From contig NZ_ALCA01000082.1 in assembly GCF_000278725.1 (NCBI RefSeq), positions 1 through 12,779 of the forward strand: 12,779 bases of DNA. Direction: 5' to 3'. How positions within the stretch are numbered: position 1 is the first letter of the stretch; each line of letters starts with the position of its first letter. Shown in pieces: positions 264 to 11,850 of this stretch. The notes below the pieces were generated by a model. It was not told the origin of the DNA. It made no database searches and worked only from the letters and a program-made list of their open reading frames with translations. The position numbers and the translations under genes are program-made. The stretch comes from Actinomyces sp. ICM47. Lineage in GTDB: Bacteria > Actinomycetota > Actinomycetes > Actinomycetales > Actinomycetaceae.

Positions 264-327
264 AAGCCCGAGTAGGCACCGCCTCCACTCACAGGCACGG
301 AAGCCGGACCCCGCTTCCACGGTGCCG

Positions 328-430
328 CTTGTTCCTAAGTGGTGTTACACCATTTAGCTGGGCATTACACCACTTCCCAGGCGGTGTAATGCTCCCTAAC
401 TGGTGTAATGCTCCCTAACTAGTACAGACC
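328..430. repeat. Structured intergenic repeat block, copy 1
   Basis: The block begins CTTGTTCCTAAGTGG and contains TGGTGTTACACCA, a palindrome around one central base. It next carries GCATTACACC and, 11 nt later, its perfect inverse GGTGTAATGC. It ends with two copies of a 19-bp unit (C/TGGTGTAATGCTCCCTAAC) and a diverged tail, AGTACAGACC. The core GGTGTAA thus appears in both orientations and could fold on either strand. It begins directly after the stop codon of the minus-strand gene at 431-1513, so a role as terminator or transcript end for that gene is possible; there is no T-tract. A second copy lies at 1689-1810. Confidence 0.8.
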
Positions 431-1929: not shown

Positions 1930-4038
1930 TCACCCCCGCTCTGCCCGCACCAGGCCAACGACCTGCGCCGAGGCCGGGGTGCCCGTCACGCGAGCCCAGC
2001 GCGCCACGACCGCGTCAACATCCAGCGATGGGTCAACGAGGAGGGCCGTCGACAGCGCTTCTGCTAGCACCCCCGACGTTGCCACCACGCTCACCTGGCG
2101 CACCCCCGCACGCGCCGGATAGCCTGTGCGCGGGTCGATGATGTGGTGGTCCAGCAGGCGCGAGGAGGGTGCCGCCCCATCGGCGTGAGAGGACACGGTA
2201 GCATCGGTCGCACACACGGGTGTTTCACGCAGGGACGAGGCCTGCCCTCCCCCGGTGGGCGCGCCCGGCTCGGCAGCAATAACAGTGGCATGAGTACGGG
2301 CATCAGTGCGAGCCTCAGAAATCACACCATCAGAGCCAGCACCACCCGCGACAGAACTCTCGCCTGACACGCCACCACCAGCACAGCCCCCACCGCCCTG
2401 CGCACCGCCATGTACACAGTCCCCACCGCTCTGCGCACCGTCATATACACAGCCACTCGCACCTGTTTCACGGGTTGTTTCACGCGCGACAGCGTTCACT
2501 GCGACGCCGCTACCATCGACGGGACGAGCGCCATCGCAGTGATCGGGTGCGCACTCGCGAGCATGATCATCAGCAGAATCGGCAACCCCACGCTCGCCGT
2601 CACGCGCGGCGCAAAGGCCGCCCAGCGGCCCCAAGTTGTCCCCCGACGTTGACAGGGACGCCATATCGCCCGCGGGAAGTTCCACGACGCCAGAAACGGC
2701 CGTGGGCGCGCCGTTCGGGTCGCGCAGGCCTGCCCGCCACGCAGAACCGTCGGCACGAGTCCCAAACACGGACACCGACGACGTCCCCACCGACACGAGG
2801 ACGCCGCGCGCCCCCATAGACACCGCGAGATCGCGGCATGTATCGGCCGTGTATCCCTTCGCAATCCCGCCGAGGTCCACGCGCGGACTCAGCGCGTCAT
2901 GCCCCTGATCGCCTGGAAGCACAGCCGCGCCCAAATCCGTCTCGCAGCCCACCAGTGCACGCGCGCCCGAGGCATCAACGCGTGCCGCGTCTTGTGCACC
3001 GCTGGAATTGGCAGCATCCTCTCGCCGCCCTGACGAACGTTCACGCTGCTTATCGCGGGTACCGTCGCCTGGCACGCAGGGTGCGCCAACGTCGGCAGTA
3101 TCGGTCCCGCACGCAGAGTCGTCAACGCTGCGCAGCGCCCACTGCCTCTCGCCGACGCGCGACAGCAAGCGCCACGACGAGGCATGCAACGCCGCCTCGA
3201 CGACACGAGCAGACGGCGCGGGAGGTAACGGCGTACCCGCGACGAAGGCGGCCCGCATGGCCCGCACGTCCCACGCGGCAACGAGCGGCCCTACCAGCGG
3301 ATTGAACGCTCCCCCAGTCGCCTCCGCGAGCGTCAGCGCGTCGCGCAGCAGCCGGTCGGTTTCTTCGCTGACGACGAGGCCTGGGCTGACCTTCGCGTCA
3401 CAGGCTCCTTCGCGGGATGGTTGCGGGCGGTGCGAGGCGGGATGCAGTGCATCAGAATTCTTGGTTGTGTCGGAGGACGTAGCGGACGCTCCAGCGGCTG
3501 TCGGGCCGGTGCTCCCATGCGCGCCATTGATCGCGAGAATCCCTGAATCTGACACGCACGAGGTATCAACGCGGAACGCAGCGTTGAGCCGCGATACCTC
3601 GGAGGATGACCGGAACACGCTCCACAGGTCTTCGTGGCGTGCCACGACCTCAACGAGGGCATTCACGATAGCCATGCCCTCGCCGCCCCACCCGATGATG
3701 TCGACGCGAGTGCCCATCGCGGGGAAGGACGAGCGCCACATCGGTGGGACGGAGGGAACCGCAGCCCCCTCATGAGCAGCGGCACCGGTGAGCGTTTTCT
3801 CTGCGGTGCCCGACGCGCCGGACGCTCCGCGAGAATCGGTGGCTGCATCGCCGCACGTCTCAGCCGCAGCATGCGACGCACCCGCAGCGCGGGCAGACCC
3901 CGAGGAAATAGCCACGGCCTCGTCCCCCGAGCCGCCCGCAGAGCGCACGGCACCCACGGAACCCCCAGAGCGCACAGGACCCGCAGAGTCCACGGCACCC
4001 ACAGGGCCCGCAGAGTCCACGCAGCCCACGGCGCGCAC
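1930..4038 (-). CDS. apbE: ApbE-type FAD:protein FMN transferase with long low-complexity insertions
   Basis: Transfers FMN from FAD to a Thr/Ser of FMN-binding domains; its likely substrate is the lipoprotein encoded just upstream. Family motifs appear in order (702-residue numbering): MGTRVDI at 108-114, LWSVFRSSSEVSRLNA at 138-153, GGAFNPLVGPLVAAWD at 242-257, DLGGIAKGYTAD at 388-399, WRAGLRDPNG at 434-443, LSTSGDN at 462-468, HIIDPRTGYP at 632-641, and AEALST at 659-664. ApbE proteins are usually about 300-350 residues; this one is twice that. The excess is an Ala/Gly/Ser-rich N-terminus (~1-99) and insertions at ~173-218, ~305-385 and ~468-628. Start: I chose GTG 4038-4036, four bases after the upstream stop, but no convincing ribosome site is visible. 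Further GTGs and ATG 3741 (just before the ApbE core) are alternatives. No signal peptide or lipobox is seen. E660 stands where an Asp metal ligand is common. The ApbE assignment is firm; start and localisation are not. Confidence 0.85.
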   Translation of the reverse strand: MRAVGCVDSAGPVGAVDSAGPVRSGGSVGAVRSAGGSGDEAVAISSGSARAAGASHAAAETCGDAATDSRGASGASGTAEKTLTGAAAHEGAAVPSVPPMWRSSFPAMGTRVDIIGWGGEGMAIVNALVEVVARHEDLWSVFRSSSEVSRLNAAFRVDTSCVSDSGILAINGAHGSTGPTAAGASATSSDTTKNSDALHPASHRPQPSREGACDAKVSPGLVVSEETDRLLRDALTLAEATGGAFNPLVGPLVAAWDVRAMRAAFVAGTPLPPAPSARVVEAALHASSWRLLSRVGERQWALRSVDDSACGTDTADVGAPCVPGDGTRDKQRERSSGRREDAANSSGAQDAARVDASGARALVGCETDLGAAVLPGDQGHDALSPRVDLGGIAKGYTADTCRDLAVSMGARGVLVSVGTSSVSVFGTRADGSAWRAGLRDPNGAPTAVSGVVELPAGDMASLSTSGDNLGPLGGLCAARDGERGVADSADDHARECAPDHCDGARPVDGSGVAVNAVARETTRETGASGCVYDGAQSGGDCVHGGAQGGGGCAGGGVSGESSVAGGAGSDGVISEARTDARTHATVIAAEPGAPTGGGQASSLRETPVCATDATVSSHADGAAPSSRLLDHHIIDPRTGYPARAGVRQVSVVATSGVLAEALSTALLVDPSLDVDAVVARWARVTGTPASAQVVGLVRAERG
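2383..2455 (-). repeat. 33-bp tandem repeat inside apbE encoding Cys-Gly repeats
   Basis: Two 33-bp units (starting at 2382 and 2415 on the plus strand, e.g. CACAGYCCCCACCGCYCTGC) followed by a degenerate third encode CVYDGAQSGGD, CVHGGAQGGGG and CAGGGVSGE. The three cysteines fall at residues 530, 541 and 552 of the 702-residue reading, exactly 11 apart. The repeat lies in the largest insertion of the ApbE protein, between its TSGD and HIIDP motifs. Confidence 0.7.
3935..4034 (-). repeat. Imperfect minisatellite encoding the apbE N-terminus
   Basis: Four imperfect units beginning CCCGCAGAG or CCCCAGAGC lie at about 3935, 3963, 3980 and 4007 on the plus strand. They encode a repeating V-D/R-S-A-G-P/G pattern at the presumed start of the ApbE protein. 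Units are spaced in multiples of three bases (3980 to 4007 is 27, 3935 to 3980 is 45), so length changes would keep the frame. Confidence 0.6.
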
Positions 4039-4042
4039 GGGC

Positions 4043-4606
4043 TCAGCTGTCGGAGCCGTCGACGTCGCTGTCCTTCGTGGAGTCGTTGAGGCCGGGAATG
4101 TCGATGTCGTCGGCACCGTCGGGAGAGACGCCCTGGGCGGCGGCGATGGCGCGGATCGCGGCCTGCACGAACTGCTGGTGGGCGACGGTGGCACCGGTGA
4201 TGACATCGACCTTGGCGGGGTCGCCGACCTGGGTGAGGTTGTCGGAGTACTCCTGGTAGGAGGCGACAGCGGCCTGTGCTTTCTTGTAGTAGTCCTCGTT
4301 GAAGACTTCGCCCGACGAACTCTTGCCGTATTCAGCACCCTTGTCGGTGCCGTCGGCGAGCGTCGTCTCGTAGGAGGTGGCTGTGATGCGCCCGCCTTCG
4401 ACGGTGATGGTGATGGTGCCGATAGAACCCTGGTCGTCGGCGTTGGACTGGGCGGTCCACGTGCCGTCGCTGAGCGGCTTGCTCATGTCGAGGCCGGTGG
4501 TGGGCGTGCAGGCGGCCAGGATGGTCGCGCCGAGCGCACCGAGGACCGCGAACGAGGCCGGGGCGACCCAGCGGGATCGGGTATCGAGCGTGGTGGGCGT
4601 GGTCAT
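4043..4606 (-). CDS. FMN-binding-domain lipoprotein, predicted flavinylated electron carrier
   Basis: A 187-residue secreted lipoprotein. The N-terminal hydrophobic segment (~15-32) ends in the lipobox LAAC with Cys33 as the lipidated residue. An FMN-binding domain (PF04205 type) follows, with the flavinylation motif DVITGAT at 134-140. By family rule T140, the last Thr of Dxx[S/T]GA[S/T], would receive FMN by a phosphoester bond from ApbE, encoded next. The C-terminus (~150-187) is Asp/Ser-rich and probably flexible. The ATG overlaps the stop of the ATPase gene (ATGA, 4606-4603), implying translational coupling. In this operon it is best read as an extracytoplasmic one- or two-electron carrier for iron reduction or redox cycling, in the place where the Campylobacter locus has thioredoxin-like proteins. 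The partner that feeds it electrons is not identified. Confidence 0.88.
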   Translation of the reverse strand: MTTPTTLDTRSRWVAPASFAVLGALGATILAACTPTTGLDMSKPLSDGTWTAQSNADDQGSIGTITITVEGGRITATSYETTLADGTDKGAEYGKSSSGEVFNEDYYKKAQAAVASYQEYSDNLTQVGDPAKVDVITGATVAHQQFVQAAIRAIAAAQGVSPDGADDIDIPGLNDSTKDSDVDGSDS

Positions 4607-5418
4607 CGCACCTTGTCCTTTCCGCTGCGCGCGGCGCCATCGCGGCCAGGCAGGACGAGGCCGGAGGCGCGCTGTTCAAAATCGTGGTCGTGCCACGTTT
4701 CCTTGACGACTTTACCGTGGTCGAGCCGGATTTCGCGCTGGCCCTGTTCGGCGACGAGCGCGTCGTGTGTGACGACCATGAGGGTCGTGCCGTCCTGGTG
4801 GAGCTGGTTGAACAGGTCGAGGACGATTTCCTCGTTGGTTTCGTCCAGGTTGCCGGTGGGTTCGTCGGCGAGGACCAGCTTGGGGTAGTTGATGAGGGCG
4901 CGGGCCACGCACACGCGCTGCTGCTCGCCGCCGGAGAGCTGGCGGGGCAGGTGACTGGCGCGGTCGGCCAGACCCACGCGGTCGAGAGCCTCGAGGGCTT
5001 CCTTTTCGTCGGGCATCGAATGGTAGTACTGCGCGACCATGACGTTCTCGAGGGCGGTCAGGTGGCCGATGAGGTGGAACTGCTGGAAGACGAGGCCGAT
5101 CGTGCGGCAGCGGACCTCGGTGAGTTCGTCGGCGGTCAGGTCGGAGATGTCGTGCCCATCGAGCATGACGGTGCCCTCGGTGGCGGTGTCCATGGCTCCG
5201 ACGATGTTCATGAGGGTCGTCTTGCCGGAGCCGGACGGGCCGACAATGGAGACCCACTGGCCGCGTGGGATCTCGAGGGACACGTTGTCGAGGGCGTGCA
5301 GGTCGCCGTAGATCTTGGAGACGCTCTCCAGGCTCAGCAGCGCGTCCGTGGAGGTCGACGAGGCCTTGGCGGCCTCGGGCGCATCGGCGGCGGCGGTGGG
5401 GGTGTCGGGGGTAGTCAT
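4603..5418 (-). CDS. ABC transporter ATPase, LolD/MacB type
   Basis: A 271-residue nucleotide-binding subunit. Motifs: Walker A GPSGSGKT at 60-67, Q-loop VFQQ at 110-113, signature LSGGEQQR at 161-168, Walker B LVLADE at 181-186 followed by PTGNLD, and H-loop His218 in VVTHD. The sequence pattern is that of MacB/LolD/FtsE-like ATPases that pair with FtsX-type permeases, which fits the two permease genes directly upstream. An upstream in-frame ATG at 5505 exists, but it lies inside the preceding permease gene. ATG 5418 follows GGAGAATGAGAGAGCCACC, a good ribosome site, and leaves 10 nt after the permease stop. The first ~25 residues are an Ala/Thr/Ser-rich tail before the domain. It corresponds in place to Cj1663 of the C. 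jejuni iron locus. Substrate unknown; mechanotransmission or extraction of a surface complex is as likely as solute transport. Confidence 0.93.
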   Translation of the reverse strand: MTTPDTPTAAADAPEAAKASSTSTDALLSLESVSKIYGDLHALDNVSLEIPRGQWVSIVGPSGSGKTTLMNIVGAMDTATEGTVMLDGHDISDLTADELTEVRCRTIGLVFQQFHLIGHLTALENVMVAQYYHSMPDEKEALEALDRVGLADRASHLPRQLSGGEQQRVCVARALINYPKLVLADEPTGNLDETNEEIVLDLFNQLHQDGTTLMVVTHDALVAEQGQREIRLDHGKVVKETWHDHDFEQRASGLVLPGRDGAARSGKDKVR

Positions 5419-5428
5419 GGTGGCTCTC

Positions 5429-6613
5429 TCATTCTCCGCGCAGGACGAGCGCGGGATCGACGGCCAGTGCGCGGCGCACGGGCGGGAGGCAGGCGAGGAC
5501 GGCAATGAGGATCGAGCAGGCGACCGTGCCGAGGAGGATCACGGGGTGCAGCGAGATGGACCGGTGGAACACGGAGGTGGAGATGAGGACGGCGAGGCCG
5601 TAGCCGGCCCCGGCACCCAGGACTCCTCCGATGAACCCGAGCATGACGCCCTCACCCATGAACTCGCGGGTGATGGATCGGGCGGTCGCGCCCAAGGCCT
5701 TGCGCAGGCCGATCTCGTTGCGGCGCTCGGTGACGACGGCGATCATCGTGGTGGATACGCCGATCATGGTCAGCGCCAGGACGATGACGGTGATGACGAT
5801 GAGCAGGGACCTCAGCATGGTGAGGACGCCCGCGTCGGACTGGGCGAGGCGTCGCACGGTCTGTGCATGAATGTCAGGGTTCGCGGCGTTCATCGCGTCC
5901 GCAACGGCACTGAGCTGTTCGCCTTCCAGGGTGATCGAGTACTCGGCGAGCGACACGGTGCCGCTGGTCCCGGTCAGCGCATCCATGTCCGAGGTGGACA
6001 TGTACACGTAGCCGTCTTCGTTGCCTCCGGTCTTGAGGATGCCGGACACGGTCAGGGTGACGGTCCTCGGATCGACCTTGAGGGCCGAGGCCTGCGCCCC
6101 GGACTGCGCAGCAGCCTTCGACGAGGCGCTCGCGTCCAGCTGGCTGATTGTGATCGTGTCTCCGGCCTTGACGTCGATGGTCGAGGCGACCTGCTCGCCC
6201 ACGAGGACCTGGCCCGAAGCCTCGGGCCACTCCCCGTCCACAAACCAGTACGGGTTCATGGCGTGCACGGCACCCAGGTCTGCCCCGCCCGCGACGTAGG
6301 GCTGGTCGTTGATGGTGACGGTCTCGTAATCAAACGCGGCGGATCCGACCAGAGCGCTCGCGGGCACCTGGGCGGTCGAGGTGGCCACGGCCTCGTCCGT
6401 GAGGACCCCGTCACCGGCGGGCGTGACGACGAGGTTTGCGCCGTAGGAGCGGATCTCGCGGGCCATCTGCGCAGGCACATCCACCGCGATGGTGACGAGG
6501 CCGGACAGGGTCGTCGCACCGATGGCGACGGCGAGAATCGCGATGAGGACGCGGGAGCGGCGGCGCAGGATGGAGGAGATGACCATCCGCCAGAACATTG
6601 CTCGTCTGGACAT
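5429..6613 (-). CDS. MacB/FtsX-type ABC permease (second of two)
   Basis: A 394-residue membrane protein with the MacB/FtsX layout: one N-terminal membrane helix (~21-43), a large extracytoplasmic domain, then three C-terminal helices around the stretch containing RRNEIGLRKALGA, the typical FtsX coupling segment. Its SYGANLVV (residues 57-64) matches SYGANIVV in the neighbouring permease, so the two are paralogues and likely form a heterodimer over the shared ATPase. Start: ATG 6613-6611 is placed 8 nt after GGAAGG. GTG 6622 and ATG 6619 are also in frame, but they overlap the previous stop and sit too close to that ribosome site. Its position matches Cj1662 of the C. jejuni P19 iron locus. 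Confidence 0.9.
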   Translation of the reverse strand: MSRRAMFWRMVISSILRRRSRVLIAILAVAIGATTLSGLVTIAVDVPAQMAREIRSYGANLVVTPAGDGVLTDEAVATSTAQVPASALVGSAAFDYETVTINDQPYVAGGADLGAVHAMNPYWFVDGEWPEASGQVLVGEQVASTIDVKAGDTITISQLDASASSKAAAQSGAQASALKVDPRTVTLTVSGILKTGGNEDGYVYMSTSDMDALTGTSGTVSLAEYSITLEGEQLSAVADAMNAANPDIHAQTVRRLAQSDAGVLTMLRSLLIVITVIVLALTMIGVSTTMIAVVTERRNEIGLRKALGATARSITREFMGEGVMLGFIGGVLGAGAGYGLAVLISTSVFHRSISLHPVILLGTVACSILIAVLACLPPVRRALAVDPALVLRGE

Positions 6614-6618
6614 AAGCA

Positions 6619-7896
6619 TCACCTTCCGTGCAGGACTTCGGCTGCGTTGAGGCGCAGCAGGTAGCGGATCGCCGGGATGGAGGCTCCCAGGACGACGAGG
6701 ATGACGAGGACGGCGACGAGGCCGACGACGACGGGCGCGAACGCGATGGACGAGTGGAAGACCATGTATCCGATCGCCTGGGCCAGAGCGAGGCCTCCGC
6801 CGTAGCCGAGAACCCCGCCGGCCAGGCCCACGATGATCGTCTCCGTGAGGAACAGGGCGATGATCTGTTTATCTTTCGCGCCCACGGCCTTCATGAGGCC
6901 GATTTCGCTGGAGCGCTCCATGACGCCGGCGGTCACCAGGTTCGCGATGGCCAGGGCCGAGGCGATGAGAGCCAGGATGGTCACGAGGACCATGAGCAGC
7001 TGGGTCTTCTCCAGGATCGTGCCTTCGGACTGGGCGACCTGGCGGACCGGGCGGGCCACGGAGTCCGTCATGACTTCCTCAATCTGGTAGGCGATCGAGG
7101 AGACGTAGGCCGTGCAGTACCACGTTTCCTTCTCGGACACGCTCAGCGAGTTCGGGTTCTTCGCGGCCTTGCGGGCCAGGTCATTGTCGGGGGTCGTCAG
7201 CGCCGAGACCTCGACGCTTCCGACGGCCCCCTCACGCCCGATGAGTGTCTGGGCGGCGGGAAGCTGGATAAAGACGCCGCGGTCGGCGTCGTCACCGCTA
7301 GTGATGATGCCGCGCACCGTGAAATCCTGGGAGACGCCCTCGCGGGTGAGCGTGAAGGTGTCGCCCACGTTCAGGCCGCGCGCCGAGGCGTAGGACGTGC
7401 CAACGATCGCGCCGGTCGCGTCATCATCCGCCGGCCACGCGCCCTGAAGACCCCACCAGCCGCGCAGCTTGTCCAGACCAGTCTCGACGCTCTCGCCGGT
7501 GGCCAACTCGAGGTGGTGGCTGAACCACGTCCCCGTCGTGGGCACGTGCTCGCCGCTGGCGTCGGTCGCCGACACGTTCAGCAGCGGCGCAAAGTCGAGA
7601 ATGTTGTAGGTCCAAAAGATCGTTTTGATGTTGCCCAGCTCGTCCTCGCGCAGGTACGAGCGCGCCTCTGAGGCCTCGCCCGTGTTGTACAGGTCATCGA
7701 GGACGGCCGCGCCCTGAGGACGCACAACAATATTGGCACCGTACGACTTAAGTTCCTGGTTGACCTTGTCGCCCACGTTGAACATGACGGAGAGCATGGA
7801 CGTGGCCACACCCGCGCCCAGGGCGACGGTCAGGGCGATCATGAGGTGGCGGTTACCGCGCCTCGTGAGGGCCCCTCGCAGCATTCGGAAAAACAC
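6619..7896 (-). CDS. MacB/FtsX-type ABC permease (first of two)
   Basis: A 425-residue membrane protein: N-terminal helix (~17-38), an extracytoplasmic domain of about 250 residues, and three C-terminal helices flanking MERSSEIGLMKAVGA, the FtsX-type coupling region. A WYC sequence in the outer domain (SEKETWYCTAY) carries an unpaired cysteine. Start: GTG 7896-7894 follows AAAGGGA at a 5-nt gap, with 10 nt after the DUF2318 stop. An ATG at 7938 would overlap the upstream gene and lacks support. It ends 5 nt before the next permease. Its position matches Cj1661 in the C. jejuni iron locus. Transported substrate unknown; in such loci it is needed for iron use but does not look like a solute importer. 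Confidence 0.9.
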   Translation of the reverse strand: MFFRMLRGALTRRGNRHLMIALTVALGAGVATSMLSVMFNVGDKVNQELKSYGANIVVRPQGAAVLDDLYNTGEASEARSYLREDELGNIKTIFWTYNILDFAPLLNVSATDASGEHVPTTGTWFSHHLELATGESVETGLDKLRGWWGLQGAWPADDDATGAIVGTSYASARGLNVGDTFTLTREGVSQDFTVRGIITSGDDADRGVFIQLPAAQTLIGREGAVGSVEVSALTTPDNDLARKAAKNPNSLSVSEKETWYCTAYVSSIAYQIEEVMTDSVARPVRQVAQSEGTILEKTQLLMVLVTILALIASALAIANLVTAGVMERSSEIGLMKAVGAKDKQIIALFLTETIIVGLAGGVLGYGGGLALAQAIGYMVFHSSIAFAPVVVGLVAVLVILVVLGASIPAIRYLLRLNAAEVLHGR

Positions 7897-7906
7897 GTGA
7901 GTCCCT

Positions 7907-9226
7907 TTACTTCGCGAAGATGGAGGCCGAGGCCTCAAGCGCCGAAATCGGCACGGTCAGTGTCCCGTTCGAGACCTTGTAGTCAATGGGGATCGGGTTA
8001 CAGCCACCCTTAAAGCCGATGGTCGCGATGTTCATCGCCACTTCACACAGCTTGCAGATGACCTTGCCGTCCTTCTCGTAGTAGCCGGTGGGGCCGCAGA
8101 TCTCGCACGCATCCAGACCCACGCCATAGGAGGAACCGGACTTTTGAATGACGATGAAACGCACCTTCACGCCGCCCGAGGTCGTGTACTCGAAGCGGTG
8201 CAGGTGGCCGTCAGAAATGTCGGCCAGGTTGACGCTCACCTGGTCCTCGACGACGCTGTATGACTCGGGGGCGGACAGCTCGACTTCCTGGCTACCGTAG
8301 GCGACACCGACGGTGATAAGCAGCGCACCGCACAGATAGCCGATGGCGGCGGTGCCCGCCATGGACTTATAGAGGCGCGAGCGGGCACGGCCCAGGCGGC
8401 CCTCGGCCGGGTTGGCTCCAACGGTCGGAATGGAGCGCGAGGCCACCCACGTCAAAACAACGACGATGCCCAGGGCCACGGCGGCCACGATGGTGAAGAC
8501 GGCCTCGTTGTTGATGAACCAGGAGATGACTGCCCACGCTTCCTTGGACGTCTTGATCCAGCGCTTCGCCTTGAGGATGCGCACGAACAGCAGCGCGTAG
8601 TTCGACAGCAGCGCAGCCAGGATCACGGCGGCCGGCCACACGCGGTTATTCCACGCGCACAGCCGGTACGACACCCACGTCAGGAAACACACGAGCACCC
8701 ACGCCAGCGCATAACCGACAATCGCGAGCACCATCGGCGTCGAATACAGCTGCACGCCGCCCGACGTCATCATGAGCGCCTGATTCATTGCGGTGGGCAC
8801 GCCGCGGAACAGGGCGAAGGCAATGAAAAGCGCGCCGACCAGACGCACGAGGCCATCCCCGCGCAGGGCGGTCTCCATGGACGAGGCAGCCCGGGCCTCG
8901 TCGTCCATGGTTTCCGTCAGGTGAGCGCGCATCCGGCGTGCGCGTACAGCAACCAGAGCGAGAAAAATCAGGGCGAGGACCACCGCGATCGGCAGCGTGT
9001 AGAGGCCCACGGTCTGGCGGTTAACAGACTTGGGGGCTTCAACATTGATAATCGTGAGGGCCAGGGAGGACGCCATGCCCACGATGATGCCGCCCCACAC
9101 GGCCCTCGAGCGCGCCAACTTTCCGCGGCGTCCCCGTCCAGCTGCGGGCATAAAGCGGATGACGGCTCCGACGGCAAGCATCGTCAGCAGCAACGTCAGC
9201 GTCGCCTCACTCATCTGCACAAGCAT
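7907..9226 (-). CDS. DUF2318 membrane protein with extracytoplasmic Cys cluster
   Basis: A 439-residue protein with about eight predicted membrane helices (near 8-26, 42-62, 73-95, 128-146, 162-184, 196-216, 243-262 and 290-310), followed by a C-terminal DUF2318 domain (~311-439). The domain shows DGHLHRFEY (His341, His343), DACEICG (C374, C377), VICKLC (C391, C394) and GGCNPI (C409). The CxxC...CxxC...C set is the family hallmark and explains the common label 'Fe-S-membrane protein'; the cofactor has not been shown here. Start ATG 9226 follows GAGAGGAAAGCC, a good site. It corresponds to Cj1660. In the operon it could be the membrane component linking electrons or metal to the P19 and FMN lipoproteins; this is inference. 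A 136-nt gap with a strong hairpin separates it from p19. Confidence 0.9.
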   Translation of the reverse strand: MLVQMSEATLTLLLTMLAVGAVIRFMPAAGRGRRGKLARSRAVWGGIIVGMASSLALTIINVEAPKSVNRQTVGLYTLPIAVVLALIFLALVAVRARRMRAHLTETMDDEARAASSMETALRGDGLVRLVGALFIAFALFRGVPTAMNQALMMTSGGVQLYSTPMVLAIVGYALAWVLVCFLTWVSYRLCAWNNRVWPAAVILAALLSNYALLFVRILKAKRWIKTSKEAWAVISWFINNEAVFTIVAAVALGIVVVLTWVASRSIPTVGANPAEGRLGRARSRLYKSMAGTAAIGYLCGALLITVGVAYGSQEVELSAPESYSVVEDQVSVNLADISDGHLHRFEYTTSGGVKVRFIVIQKSGSSYGVGLDACEICGPTGYYEKDGKVICKLCEVAMNIATIGFKGGCNPIPIDYKVSNGTLTVPISALEASASIFAK

Positions 9227-9286
9227 TGGCTTTCCTCTCTCACCAAAGGCACACCGAAGTCATGCGGCTCCGGTGCCGAGTGTAGT

Positions 9287-9345
9287 CCCCCACGGGGGCG
9301 CGGGGCGAGGCCAGCGATCCCGGGTGGACCACGGCCTCGTCCCCG
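9287..9345 (-). terminator. Hairpin(s) between p19 and the DUF2318 gene: attenuator or partial terminator
   Basis: CGGGGCGAGGCC (9301-9312) pairs with GGCCTCGTCCCCG (9333-9345) through 12 GC-rich pairs with a single bulged T, around a 20-nt loop. Beside it CCCCCACGGGGG (9287-9298) can also pair. No T-tract follows on the minus strand, so a classical intrinsic terminator is not shown. This is the only wide gap (136 nt) inside the operon, so reduced read-through, or RNA processing that favours FTR1 and P19 output, is a reasonable guess. Confidence 0.5.
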
Positions 9346-9362
9346 CGTTGCTTAAGCGTCGA

Positions 9363-9989
9363 TCACCACGAAACGGCGGTGGGGTCCCACTGCCAATCCG
9401 GGAACTCGGCGACGAGGGGTTCGGTCCAGAAACGGCCCTCAACGCCCGTGGTCTTATCGGTGTGCAGCAGCCAACCGCTGGGGGGCTTGATCGTGAAGGT
9501 CACGTCGTAGGTGCCGGCGTCGAGCTTGGGCAGGTTCAGGCCGTAGTGCGGGCCGTCGGACGCGTTCATCGGCATGAGCGTGCCCTCCTGGACGGCCGTG
9601 CCGGACTTGTCCTTGATCGCGTAGTCGACGGTCAGGCCGGGGACGAAGTCGCCCGCGCCGTAGCCAAGCTTGTTGTCAGCGGCGGCGGAGACGTCGGCCT
9701 CAATGTGCATCGAGGACTCGGCGGCCGGGGTGCCCATCTCAGGCTCCATATCGACGGGCTGGAAGTAGACGCCACCCACGACGAGCGGGCCGACGTGAAC
9801 ATCGTCACCCAGGGGCTGCTCCTCGAAGCCAGCGTCCTCGCCGGGCGCCGCGCCCTCGGAGGCCGAGGTGGAGGTGGAGGTGCCCGTCTTGGAAGTGGAC
9901 GAGGAGGAACCGGCGGAGCAGGACGCCAGGGTACCTGCGAGTGCCAGCGTGGCCAGGGCCGCGCCGACGCGGAACAGAGAGCGCTTCAT
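9363..9989 (-). CDS. P19/FetP-type periplasmic iron-copper binding lipoprotein
   Basis: A 208-residue lipoprotein: signal peptide with lipobox LASC (Cys24), a Ser/Thr-rich linker (~25-45), then a P19/Tp34-family (PF10634) domain. Family landmarks are GGVYFQPVDMEPE (72-84), MHIEADVSA (94-102), LMPMNASDGPHYG (138-150) and H176. By spacing, H95, E97, M141, H148 and H176 match the copper/iron site residues known from FetP of E. coli and P19 of C. jejuni (H-x-E, then M 46 residues after the His, then His 7 further on), so the metal site looks intact. Known members are dimeric, bind copper, and act with FTR1 in ferrous iron uptake. ATG 9989 follows AGGAG with an 8-nt gap; the gene lies 56 nt after FTR1. 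It is lipid-anchored, as expected in a monoderm, unlike the soluble Gram-negative forms. Confidence 0.93.
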   Translation of the reverse strand: MKRSLFRVGAALATLALAGTLASCSAGSSSSTSKTGTSTSTSASEGAAPGEDAGFEEQPLGDDVHVGPLVVGGVYFQPVDMEPEMGTPAAESSMHIEADVSAAADNKLGYGAGDFVPGLTVDYAIKDKSGTAVQEGTLMPMNASDGPHYGLNLPKLDAGTYDVTFTIKPPSGWLLHTDKTTGVEGRFWTEPLVAEFPDWQWDPTAVSW

Positions 9990-10045
9990 ATGATGATCTC
10001 CTGTGCGTGTTGGTTGGGTAAAACGTCGGTGTCGCTCGAGAGGAG

Positions 10046-11668
10046 TCAGTCCTCAGCCCGCGACTGGGCGGCCTCGCGGGCGAGGCGAGCTTTTCCGAAG
10101 AAATAGAGACCGACGATGATGGCGAGAACGATGGCTTGCGCGGCCAGGTTCTCCACTCGGGGGTAGATCCCCAAGAGGTCAATGGTGGGGAAGCCGGAGA
10201 TGGGCGTCAGAGACACGACGTCCGCCTCCTGCAGTTCCCCGATACCAGAACCCGTGAACGTGAAGGCCATGAAGGCCATCAGCAGCGAGGTAATGGTGAA
10301 GAAGGGGCGCAGCGGGATGCGAACCGCCGCGAACTGGATGAGCAGGTAGATGACAACGAGGGCCACGAGGCCGACCGCCAAGCCGATCCACACGTAGTGG
10401 ACCTTGTCGCCCGCGGCGGCGACGATCGGGACATAGAAGAGGATCGTCTCGGCACCTTCGCGCAGGACCGCGAGGAAGGAGATGAAGGCGAGGCCCAGCA
10501 GGGAGCCGCTGCTCAGCGACGCATCCGTCTGCTTCTTGATGTACTCATCCCAGGCCTTGTTGGAGGATTTGTTGATCATCCAGTTGGAGACCCAGATGAG
10601 CATGACGACCGCGAAGAGCGCGGCGAAGCCCTCAAGGAGTTCCTGGTTCGCGCCCGCCAGGGAAGTGACGTAGCTGAAGAGGACGGCCAGACCGATGGAC
10701 AGGGCGAAGGCGAGCGCCACGCCACCCCAGACGATCGGGGCCTTGTTCTTGTGACCGGCCTTGGCCAGGTAGGCCAGGACTGCGGCGACGACGAGGATCG
10801 CCTCCATGCCCTCACGCAGGATCACGAGGAGGGAGGGCAGGAACTGCGCGAGCCACGGGGAGGTGCCCGAATCCTGAGCGGCCTTGCCGGTGTAGCCGTC
10901 GAGGCTGTTGGCGTCCTCGCGGATGTAATTCGTCAGCGTCGCGAGGTGCTGGTCGACCGCCGCCGAATCATCATCGGTCATGGCCTTCTTGAGGAGCGAG
11001 AACTCCATTTCGACCTGGGAGACGCGCGAACCGGAGATGCGGCTCATAACCTGCTTCTCCATACCGGTGATCTCGTAGTGCTTGTAGTAGGCCTCGTTGA
11101 CCTTGTCCTTACCGGCCTTGGCGTCGCCGCCCTTGTAGGCGTTGGCACCGTCATTAAGGATGCCGTTGATAGTCTTGGCGACCTCGCCCCACGCGCCGGG
11201 GCTGTAGTCGTTCGACGAGGCCTGGGAGGACGTACCGGGGGCTACACCGTCCAGGGACGCGGCGTCTTCAACGATGTACTGCTTGAGGGTCGTGGCATAA
11301 CTGTCGACGCCCGCGCTATCACCGTCCGTCATGGCCTTCTTGAGGAGGGAGAACTCCATTTCGACCTGAGAGACACGCGAACCGGAGATGCGGGCCATGA
11401 CCTGCTTCTCCATACCGGTGATCTCGTAGTGCTTGTAGTAGGCGTCGTTGACCTTATCCTTGCCGCCCTTAGCGTCGCCCCCCTTAAAGGTGGACACGCC
11501 TTCGTCGATGAGGCCGTTGATCGTCGTCGCGACGTCGCCCCACGTCTGGTTGGCCGCGCGCGACGGCACAGCGACAATCGCCACGACGAGAGACGCCATG
11601 ACCAGGGCGATGAGAAGACGAATAGACCGCTGGACAACATGATCTGCGCGAGCACGAAGCACTGCCAT
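10046..11668 (-). CDS. FTR1-family iron permease with duplicated extracytoplasmic domain
   Basis: A 540-residue permease. Residues 14-38 form a signal/anchor segment with a likely cleavage after SRA (38). Two tandem copies of a 117-residue unit follow (starting at WGDV 43 and WGEV 160), each with YYKHYEITGMEKQV and a Glu-rich helix (EMEFSLLKK). From ~275 on comes a seven-helix FTR1 domain with both signature motifs, REGME (285-289) and REGAE (403-407), whose glutamates bind iron in this family. Start: ATG 11668 lies 6 nt after AGGAGG. An ATG at 11743 would add 25 residues but lacks such a site. First gene of the operon, with the DtxR-like box about 100 bp upstream. It corresponds to Cj1658. 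Presumed role: moving iron across the membrane with P19. The overall family is certain; the redox state of the substrate is not. Confidence 0.95.
   Translation of the reverse strand: MAVLRARADHVVQRSIRLLIALVMASLVVAIVAVPSRAANQTWGDVATTINGLIDEGVSTFKGGDAKGGKDKVNDAYYKHYEITGMEKQVMARISGSRVSQVEMEFSLLKKAMTDGDSAGVDSYATTLKQYIVEDAASLDGVAPGTSSQASSNDYSPGAWGEVAKTINGILNDGANAYKGGDAKAGKDKVNEAYYKHYEITGMEKQVMSRISGSRVSQVEMEFSLLKKAMTDDDSAAVDQHLATLTNYIREDANSLDGYTGKAAQDSGTSPWLAQFLPSLLVILREGMEAILVVAAVLAYLAKAGHKNKAPIVWGGVALAFALSIGLAVLFSYVTSLAGANQELLEGFAALFAVVMLIWVSNWMINKSSNKAWDEYIKKQTDASLSSGSLLGLAFISFLAVLREGAETILFYVPIVAAAGDKVHYVWIGLAVGLVALVVIYLLIQFAAVRIPLRPFFTITSLLMAFMAFTFTGSGIGELQEADVVSLTPISGFPTIDLLGIYPRVENLAAQAIVLAIIVGLYFFGKARLAREAAQSRAED
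10980..11490 (-). repeat. 351-bp in-gene tandem duplication in the FTR1 gene
   Basis: The stretch from 10980 recurs from 11331, an offset of 351 bases (117 codons). Over the first ~157 bases I count about 14 differences by eye. At protein level residues 71-122 and 188-239 differ at only four of 52 positions, while the flanks are more diverged. The core was duplicated recently or is kept alike by gene conversion or strong selection. Confidence 0.8.
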
Positions 11669-11768: not shown

Positions 11769-11782
11769 TTAGGTTCTCCTAA
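11769..11782. promoter_or_regulatory. Putative DtxR/IdeR-family metal-responsive operator
   Basis: TTAGG-TTCT-CCTAA is a 5-bp perfect inverted repeat. It matches the left 14 bases of the DtxR/IdeR consensus TTAGGTTAGSCTAACCTAA in its arms, but the outer right part (CCTAA again) is missing, so this is a half-length or divergent box. On the minus strand it lies just after TTGCAA (11789-11784), a possible -35, and would cover the spacer of an FTR1 promoter; no good -10 is evident. Its position before an iron operon supports iron-dependent repression. It could also be bound by an MntR-like relative. Confidence 0.5.
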
Positions 11783-11850
11783 ATTGCAACCCCGTCGTAA
11801 CGTTATTTAGCGCCCCCTCGCACTCACCTTCTGGGACCAAAGGCCCGCAA

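What the first reader, a model, noticed from the sequence alone, without database searches (positions are those of the whole stretch)
1930..11668. P19/FTR1 iron operon with a flavinylation module in place of thioredoxins
The order FTR1, P19, DUF2318, permease, permease, ATPase is seen directly and equals the C. jejuni Cj1658-Cj1663 order as I recall it. That locus ends in thioredoxin-like proteins (Cj1664, Cj1665). Here the end is a lipobox-bearing FMN-binding protein with a DxxTGAT site plus ApbE, coupled by overlap and a 4-nt gap. Inference: a covalent-FMN carrier replaces a thiol carrier in giving or taking electrons during surface iron handling (for example Fe3+ reduction for P19/FTR1). 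This would be a monoderm, flavin-driven version of the FetMP/P19 system.
Basis: partly seen in the sequence, partly recalled or inferred. Interest (0 to 1): 0.72.

Follow-up and report, generated by a model that had tools for sequence, protein, structure and literature searches.

The report
Flavin-type P19/FTR1 iron uptake operon
This is a known kind of bacterial iron-uptake operon that uses a flavin-carrying surface protein, but the enzyme that attaches the flavin appears to stay inside the cell while its target is exported, which is unusual and testable.

Summary
In detail: one minus-strand operon reads FTR1, P19, DUF2318, two FtsX-type permeases, ATPase, FMN-binding lipoprotein (DVITGAT), ApbE. 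The headline interpretation is not new: Liu 2018 and Méheust 2021 (260 clusters) reported FMN-binding proteins where Proteobacteria have thioredoxins, and the Bifidobacterium breve version has mutant phenotypes. It is not monoderm-specific. Three points go further. (1) The operon's ApbE has no leader: 0 of 45 non-identical FMN_bind-ApbE neighbour pairs, although all 45 partners carry a lipobox; ApbEs elsewhere in operon-bearing genomes have a hydrophobic leader in 27 of 30. Exactly one FMN_bind protein was detected in 29 of 29 actinobacterial genomes searched. The likely reading is one cytosolic ApbE for one exported lipoprotein. (2) The DUF2318 C-terminal domain is predicted to have a Rieske fold with CxxC-x13-CxxC in place of CxH/CxxH. 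(3) In 20 of 48 loci with enough downstream sequence, mostly Clostridia, the operon continues into a cytochrome-b-like/FrdA/FrdB-like trio, a candidate membrane electron conduit. Electron direction is unproven; published B. breve chelator data lean towards ferric reduction.

The parts
11769..11787 (.). Candidate DtxR/IdeR-type iron box, about 100 bp upstream of FTR1
   Evidence: 26 of 42 upstream regions (window plus relatives, including duplicates) reach p<=0.02.
10046..11668 (-). FTR1 iron permease with a duplicated extracytosolic N-terminal domain (540 aa)
   Evidence: PF03239 155 bits; the repeat is visible in the translation.
9363..9989 (-). P19 iron-binding lipoprotein (208 aa)
   Evidence: PF10634 169 bits; 18 distinct solved P19-family sequences match.
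7907..9226 (-). DUF2318/FtrD-like membrane protein (439 aa): membrane bundle 1-312 plus C-terminal beta domain
   Evidence: model pLDDT 93.7.
7937..8248 (-). Rieske-fold domain of DUF2318 (residues 327-430) with CxxC-x13-CxxC (Cys374, 377, 391, 394) in place of CxH/CxxH
6619..7938 (-). FtsX/MacB-type ABC permease 1
   Evidence: PF02687 and PF12704 above cut-off.
5429..6622 (-). FtsX/MacB-type ABC permease 2
   Evidence: PF02687 and PF12704 above cut-off.
4603..5505 (-). ABC ATPase (probable start ATG at 5418)
   Evidence: PF00005 122 bits. FtsE/MacB/LolD-like, below equivalog cut-offs.
4043..4606 (-). FMN-binding lipoprotein, SifE-like (187 aa); lipobox Cys33; flavinylation motif DVITGAT
   Evidence: PF04205 20.8 bits (cut-off 22), NF041941 PplA-like 45.6 bits (cut-off 325); motif conserved.
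4187..4207 (-). DVITGAT, predicted FMN attachment site (last Thr, residue 140)
   Evidence: acceptor Thr/Ser kept in all 65 survey FMN_bind proteins. That the last Thr/Ser is the acceptor is recalled.
1930..4038 (-). ApbE, FAD:protein FMN transferase, leaderless, with low-complexity inserts (702 aa from GTG)
   Evidence: PF02424 145 bits; no hydrophobic N-terminal segment. Glu at the metal-site Asp position.
2149..2637 (-). Hypervariable Gly/Ala/Ser-rich insert in ApbE between STSGD and HHIIDP
   Evidence: the STSGD-to-HHIIDP span is 168 aa here and 168-390 aa (30 lengths) in the 120 best-listed of 1800 homologues.

Best explanation
This is the actinobacterial, FMN-type form of the FetMP-FetABCD / BfeUO-SifABCDE iron-uptake system. 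P19 and FTR1 bind and import iron (established for relatives). The leaderless ApbE attaches FMN to the threonine of DVITGAT in the cytosol, before or during export of the lipoprotein (inferred). The exported flavoprotein then exchanges electrons with the all-cysteine Rieske-fold site of DUF2318, which passes single electrons to Fe3+ at P19/FTR1 so that iron enters as Fe2+ (inferred; direction about 0.55 reduction, 0.25 oxidation). The FtsX/MacB-type ABC unit supplies ATP-driven conformational work on the surface complex rather than classical substrate import (inferred). What reduces the flavin in this organism is not encoded in the operon.
For: Gene content and order. Conservation: FMN_bind as the seventh gene in 65 of 81 loci; of the other 16, 13 are cut by contig ends, 1 has a divergent FMN_bind, 2 are unexplained. 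ApbE linkage: 28 of 28 fetched Actinomycetaceae-family loci, 25 directly downstream and 3 divergent upstream. Pairing: exactly one FMN_bind detected in 9 of 9 and 20 of 20 actinobacterial genomes, and ApbE at one place in 9 of 9 and 26 of 26. Leaderless ApbE with lipobox-bearing partner: 0 of 45 and 45 of 45. Rieske fold. Genetics from print: sifA-E and apbE (Bbr_1825) transposon mutants of B. breve grow normally without chelator or with ciclopirox but poorly with dipyridyl and phenanthroline, while bfeU/bfeO mutants fail with all three (PMC5449479, table passage). The authors call dipyridyl a ferrous chelator, ciclopirox a ferric one, and phenanthroline a binder of both. That Sif is dispensable when Fe3+ is chelated but needed when Fe2+ is chelated fits a role in using Fe3+ (my reading).
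Confidence: 0.55

Rival explanations
1. Electron-sink reading: FTR1 imports iron only if Fe2+ is oxidised on the way, and the flavoprotein (thioredoxin in Proteobacteria) removes those electrons. In anaerobic Clostridia they would go through the cytochrome-b/Frd-like complex to fumarate.
For: In the Clostridia-type loci the FrdA-like subunit keeps the dicarboxylate-site residues in 21 of 21 (Ser or Thr at one of them) but has Gln at the covalent-FAD His in 21 of 21, and its cytochrome-like subunit keeps four His in 15 of 15. Residue roles, and that E. coli FrdA His44 mutants keep fumarate reduction and lose succinate oxidation, are recalled. PMC11966278 passages describe Cu2+-bound FtrA oxidising Fe2+ and yeast Ftr1p taking only Fe3+ made in situ. 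PMC10783030 suggests FetE/F may act as oxidases.
Against: B. breve bfeU/bfeO mutants fail with ciclopirox but sif mutants grow normally, so the permease works without Sif there. Covalent FMN domains are low-potential carriers (recalled). The window's operon has no Frd-like genes.
Confidence: 0.25
2. The leaderless ApbE is in fact extracytosolic (exported without a classical leader, or released by lysis) and acts on the lipoprotein after export, as other ApbEs do.
For: The ApbE review says most bacterial ApbEs seem to be secreted and act on secreted targets (PMC12052999 passages).
Against: 0 of 45 linked ApbEs have a hydrophobic N-terminal segment, and in 25 of 45 the longest possible reading frame begins within 17 nt of the FMN_bind stop, leaving no room for a leader. 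37 linked ApbEs form one supported clade (100/99), so this is not scattered mis-annotation.
Confidence: 0.2
3. The ABC unit and flavoprotein handle another substrate (haem or siderophore), and their link to FTR1/P19 is only regulatory.
For: Fusobacterium L001 has DUF2318-permease-permease-ATPase-FMN_bind without FTR1/P19 in the fetched 18.5 kb. B. breve transcribes bfeUO and sifABCDE separately and the mutants differ.
Against: P19 found in 77 and FTR1 in 74 of 81 loci. C. jejuni fetA-D mutants behave like fetP mutants (PMC10783030 passages).
Confidence: 0.12

Closest known systems
FetMP-FetABCDEF of Campylobacter jejuni (CJJ81176_1649-1656)
   Same: First six genes and their order (PMC6083913, PMC10783030 passages).
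   Different: Thioredoxins FetE/FetF are absent; an FMN_bind lipoprotein and ApbE take their place.
BfeUO-SifABCDE of Bifidobacterium breve UCC2003
   Same: Same seven functions, including FMN-binding SifE; required under ferrous chelation (PMC5449479 passages).
   Different: Two transcription units; apbE lies elsewhere in the genome (Bbr_1825).
P19-associated flavinylation clusters of Méheust et al. 2021
   Same: P19 + FTR1 + FMN_bind, mostly Gram-positive; 260 clusters (PMC8238504 passages).
   Different: [quoted passage not shown] such loci may be in its tables, but the passages found do not remark on leaderless ApbEs. It places P19 among clusters that lack a transmembrane electron system, whereas part of the Clostridia-type loci carry a Frd/cytochrome-b-like one.
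Cytosolic ApbE of Klebsiella
   Same: ApbE without a leader (PMC12052999 passages).
   Different: Its target is a soluble fumarate reductase; here the only detected FMN_bind target is an exported lipoprotein.
Rieske ferredoxins
   Same: Predicted fold of the DUF2318 C-terminal domain.
   Different: Four Cys instead of two Cys and two His.

Membership tests
FetMP-FetABCD / P19-FTR1 iron uptake operon | FTR1, P19, DUF2318, two FtsX permeases, ATPase in this order | tested here: met
FetMP-FetABCDEF, Campylobacter form | Thioredoxin as seventh/eighth gene | tested here: not met
   The window's seventh and eighth genes are FMN_bind and ApbE. Among 146 unlabelled ORFs of 90-280 aa within 7 kb in 81 loci, 2 have [WYF]CxxC and neither looks like a thioredoxin (motif test only).
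FMN-type P19 cluster (Liu 2018, Méheust 2021) | FMN_bind protein with D-x-x-[ST]-G-A-[ST] and export signal beside P19/FTR1 | tested here: met
   PF04205 20.8 bits against cut-off 22 for the window copy.
FMN-type P19 cluster (Liu 2018, Méheust 2021) | Covalent FMN on the protein | not testable with these tools
   Needs a flavin-fluorescence gel or mass spectrometry.
ApbE (FAD:protein FMN transferase) | PF02424 match with conserved core motifs | tested here: met
   in a 72-row alignment, Lys of AKG in 72 and His of the HHIIDP motif in 71.
ApbE acting on exported targets | Signal peptide or lipidation on ApbE | tested here: not met
   0 of 45 linked ApbEs, and the window's, by hydropathy.
Rieske [2Fe-2S] protein | Rieske fold | tested here: met
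   [not shown]
Rieske [2Fe-2S] protein | CxH ... CxxH cluster ligands | tested here: not met
   CxxC-x13-CxxC invariant in 63 rows.
Listeria PplA extracellular electron transfer lipoprotein | NF041941 match over its cut-off | tested here: not met
   45.6 bits against cut-off 325.
FtrABCD | Cupredoxin FtrB in the operon | tested here: not met
   no such gene among the eight.
EfeUOB | EfeO/EfeB partners (imelysin, DyP peroxidase) | tested here: not met
   none among the eight genes; NF041756 EfeU 145 bits against cut-off 255.

The most novel reading that the evidence does not exclude
A clade of leaderless, cytosolic ApbEs flavinylates one dedicated lipoprotein before it leaves the cell, so a covalently flavin-bearing chain is exported. 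Outside, the flavin works with an all-cysteine Rieske-fold domain in DUF2318 as a new two-cofactor iron redox unit, which in Clostridia is wired through a diheme-cytochrome-b/Frd-like complex to a cytosolic dicarboxylate couple.
Probability: 0.35. Interest if true: 0.75.

Novelty: new variant of a known kind. Interest (0 to 1): 0.5.

Why it matters
How FetMP-type systems power iron uptake is an open question in the papers read here. A Rieske-like site in DUF2318 and a Frd/cytochrome-b-like partner in Clostridia give concrete, testable electron carriers for clusters that Méheust 2021 placed among those without a transmembrane electron system. A leaderless ApbE with a single exported target would mean flavinylation can precede export, so a signal-peptide filter on ApbE alone would undercount flavinylation. 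The B. breve apbE mutant phenotype, attributed in print to Fe-S repair, becomes evidence for flavinylation of SifE.

Tried and rejected

Results against my reading: L031 and L034 have P19-DUF2318 but no FMN_bind found. Three unlinked ApbEs (L188, L209, L210) show no hydrophobic leader; for L209 and L210 the domain start is unsure. In the second actinobacterial family 2 linked ApbEs keep Asp rather than Glu and 1 is truncated. The DtxR-like box in the window is only marginal. Linked ApbEs are not all one clade: the L014/L165/L175/L177 group and L065 fall elsewhere. The cytochrome-b-like subunit and C2 match no Pfam or NCBIfam family.

Rows dropped: identical ApbE C-termini removed before counts; L053 and L057 ApbEs moved to the unlinked set because they are not behind FMN_bind. 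The 80 loci are the best 80 of 307 confirmed, themselves from a capped list, so they are biased to close relatives. In one search L007 was missed by the script's distance rule; counting it by hand makes 13 of 57 with adjacent ApbE. Searches left out G432 of the 33 family genomes over the cut-off; G001, G003, G006 and G008 were already held.
Full report
What is there. The window (an uncultured Actinomyces/Schaalia-type sequence: its DUF2318 protein is identical to one named 'uncultured Actinomyces sp.', and 84% identical to Schaalia odontolytica's) holds one minus-strand operon: FTR1 (10046-11668), P19 (9363-9989), DUF2318 (7907-9226), two FtsX/MacB-type permeases (6619-7938, 5429-6622), ATPase (4603-5505), FMN-binding lipoprotein (4043-4606) and ApbE (1930-4038). 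The window's FMN_bind protein falls just under Pfam's cut-off (20.8 against 22), but aligned relatives keep the motif and several pass the cut-off.

What is already known. Liu et al. 2018 (PMC6083913; passages) compared 33 species. All have the first six genes in this order; most Proteobacteria have a thioredoxin as the seventh, while Actinobacteria, Firmicutes, Spirochaetes and Synergistetes have an FMN-binding protein, and both are proposed to supply reducing power to ferric iron. Méheust et al. 2021 (PMC8238504; passages) counted 260 P19 clusters with an FMN-binding gene and drew the same parallel. In Bifidobacterium breve the operon pair bfeUO-sifABCDE, with FMN-binding SifE, was studied by transposon mutants (PMC5449479; passages). 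So the core of the finding is a rediscovery. It is also not monoderm-specific: the 81-locus survey has FMN_bind versions in Spirochaetaceae, Pelosinus, Pectinatus and Selenomonadales, and Fusobacterium has the DUF2318-ABC-FMN_bind part.

Survey. Profiles built from the window found P19 in 77, FTR1 in 74 and FMN_bind in 65 of 81. Of the 16 without FMN_bind, 13 are cut by contig ends, L014 has a divergent lipoprotein that Pfam scores 21.7 bits as FMN_bind (cut-off 22), and L031 and L034 are unexplained. The acceptor Thr/Ser is kept in all 65. Among 146 unlabelled ORFs of 90-280 aa within 7 kb, 2 carry [WYF]CxxC and neither looks like a thioredoxin; an earlier test used a faulty expression and is void.

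ApbE linkage. ApbE lies directly behind FMN_bind in 12 of 57 loci with at least 900 bp downstream by script, 13 with L007 counted by hand. In the window's own family, DUF2318 passes the cut-off in 33 of 151 genomes; drawn from the whole class it passes in 1 of 296, and that one is the centre genome itself. Of 28 family loci fetched, 25 have FMN_bind-ApbE directly downstream, and 3 have ApbE divergent upstream of FTR1 with no FMN_bind found by my profile. In those three genomes, as in L014's genome, Pfam finds one FMN_bind, lying within the same locus. In a second actinobacterial family 11 of 18 genomes have ApbE, and 10 loci show FMN_bind-ApbE behind the ATPase. Genome-wide, ApbE is found in 39 of 40 operon-bearing genomes (7 of 14 control genomes). 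In actinobacterial genomes exactly one FMN_bind was detected in 9 of 9 and 20 of 20, and ApbE matches lie at one place in 9 of 9 and 26 of 26. The two Clostridia with linked ApbE have one FMN_bind (G011) and one plus a weak second below cut-off (G016); Pectinatus (G015, leaderless ApbE upstream) has one; seven genomes with unlinked ApbE have 2 to 7 matches, some of them repeats in one protein. Divergent FMN_bind proteins could still be missed.

The linked ApbE is leaderless. Among 45 non-identical neighbour pairs, 45 of 45 FMN_bind proteins have a lipobox signal and 0 of 45 ApbEs have a hydrophobic N-terminal segment; the window pair agrees. ApbEs not linked to the operon, in other operon-bearing genomes, have one in 28 of 32, or 27 of 30 after removing repeats. 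In an IQ-TREE tree of 72 ApbEs, 37 linked ones, from Actinomycetota and two Clostridia and including the window's, form one clade (100/99), while L065 and the L014-type group fall outside. All 37 have Glu where 29 of 30 unlinked ones have Asp; in the second family it is Glu in 7, Asp in 2, with 1 truncated. Counted along the alignment, this position is Asp284 of the solved chain 4xdt; that it is a Mg2+ ligand is recalled. [quoted passage not shown] The ApbE review, in the passages read, describes cytosolic ApbEs with intracellular targets (PMC12052999). Two paper searches showed, in the rows listed, no paper on a leaderless ApbE with an exported target; one search listed 10 of 77. The simplest reading is flavinylation in the cytosol before export. 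How a flavin-bearing chain crosses the membrane is open; twin-arginine signals are not consistent.

A candidate membrane conduit in Clostridia-type loci. In 20 of 48 loci with at least 4.5 kb after FMN_bind, and 22 of 81 in all, the operon continues with a membrane-anchored protein (C2), a cytochrome-b-like subunit, a FrdA/SdhA-like flavoprotein and a FrdB/SdhB-like iron-sulfur protein; none of these 20 has linked ApbE. Most are Clostridia; L053 is Atopobiaceae. The two catalytic subunits match Pfam and NCBIfam families. The cytochrome-like subunit and C2 match none, so that name rests on hydrophobicity, position and four His invariant in 15 of 15. The FrdA-like subunits keep the substrate residues but have Gln at the covalent-FAD position in 21 of 21 (residue roles recalled). 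An independent sample of 246 genomes gave 9 matches to the cytochrome-like profile, including the query genome. Eight loci were fetched: one shows the whole operon, one shows it from P19 onward, one has the trio beside FTR1/P19, one beside ABC genes, one alone with C2, one is on a partial contig, and two are weak. Méheust's main text, in the passages found, does not mention this link; its supplementary tables could not be read. One search joining fumarate reductase, FTR1, P19, FMN-binding and iron uptake listed three papers; two were read in passages and the third, a C. jejuni transposon screen, only in the listing.

How it works, most likely. Shown: gene content, conservation, the leaderless/lipobox pairing, the predicted fold. 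Known for relatives: P19 and FTR1 carry iron, and loss of FetA-D or of sif and apbE genes harms growth on low iron. Inferred: the flavoprotein feeds single electrons through the DUF2318 site to Fe3+. The B. breve table supports this direction. Over none, two dipyridyl doses, ciclopirox and phenanthroline, sifA-D give +++/-/-/+++/-, sifE +++/-/-/+++/+, apbE +++/+/+/+++/- and bfeU/bfeO +++/-/-/-/-. The authors read this as ferrous transport; mntH gives a similar pattern (+++/+/-/+++/++). The opposite direction, flavin as oxidant, remains a serious rival because of the Gln-bearing Frd-like subunit and the oxidase-like FetE.

Verdict. Real, conserved, and in its main claim already in print. The new parts are the leaderless dedicated ApbE clade, the Rieske-like DUF2318 domain and the Frd-like partner; all are computational and need bench tests.

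Noticed in passing
window 1930-4038 (insert 2149-2637, minus strand): ApbE carries a Gly/Ala/Ser-rich insert inside its catalytic domain; the STSGD-HHIIDP span has 30 different lengths (168-390 aa) among the 120 best-listed homologues. P0125 is the window's protein plus one 78-aa copy; other lengths look like further imperfect copies, judged by eye on four sequences.
   Followed up: partly
L013-L081 Clostridia-type loci, e.g. L081:14749-15249: The membrane-anchored protein C2 beside FMN_bind has a D-x-x-[ST]-[GS]-[AP]-[ST] motif near its N terminus in 17 of 18 (two exact DAVTGAS), a possible second flavinylation site next to the cytochrome-like gene.
   Followed up: partly
window 316-423 and 1677-1784: A 108-nt direct repeat (93%) with 19-nt tandem units brackets ORF 431-1513, which has only a weak MTES_1575 endonuclease hit (15.3 bits, cut-off 38.2); possibly a mobile or repeat element.
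   Followed up: no
L125, L127-L138, L140, L142-L145: 18 Clostridia-class loci carry a short DUF2318 protein (open frames of about 167-199 aa) with none of this operon's other genes within about 1.5 kb.
   Followed up: no
L003, L005: Contigs titled Sanguibacter keddieii and Xylanimonas cellulosilytica hold Schaalia-type operons (DUF2318 83-85% identical) and recur in the family sample of G001; the titles look like mislabelled genomes.
   Followed up: partly
L001 (NZ_CP084075.1): A 2.1-Mb Fusobacterium record is filed as a plasmid; its genes beside the match look chromosomal, so it is probably a chromosome.
   Followed up: no
L014, L165, L175, L177: A subgroup (L014 is Actinomyces gerencseriae) has a divergent FMN_bind lipoprotein (LAGAS in L014) and a separate ApbE lineage transcribed away from FTR1.
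   Followed up: partly
upstream of FTR1 in L171-L174, L152, L176 and others: Near-perfect DtxR/IdeR-like boxes (17 of 18 positions of a recalled consensus) lie about 30-70 bp upstream of the longest FTR1 frame.
   Followed up: partly
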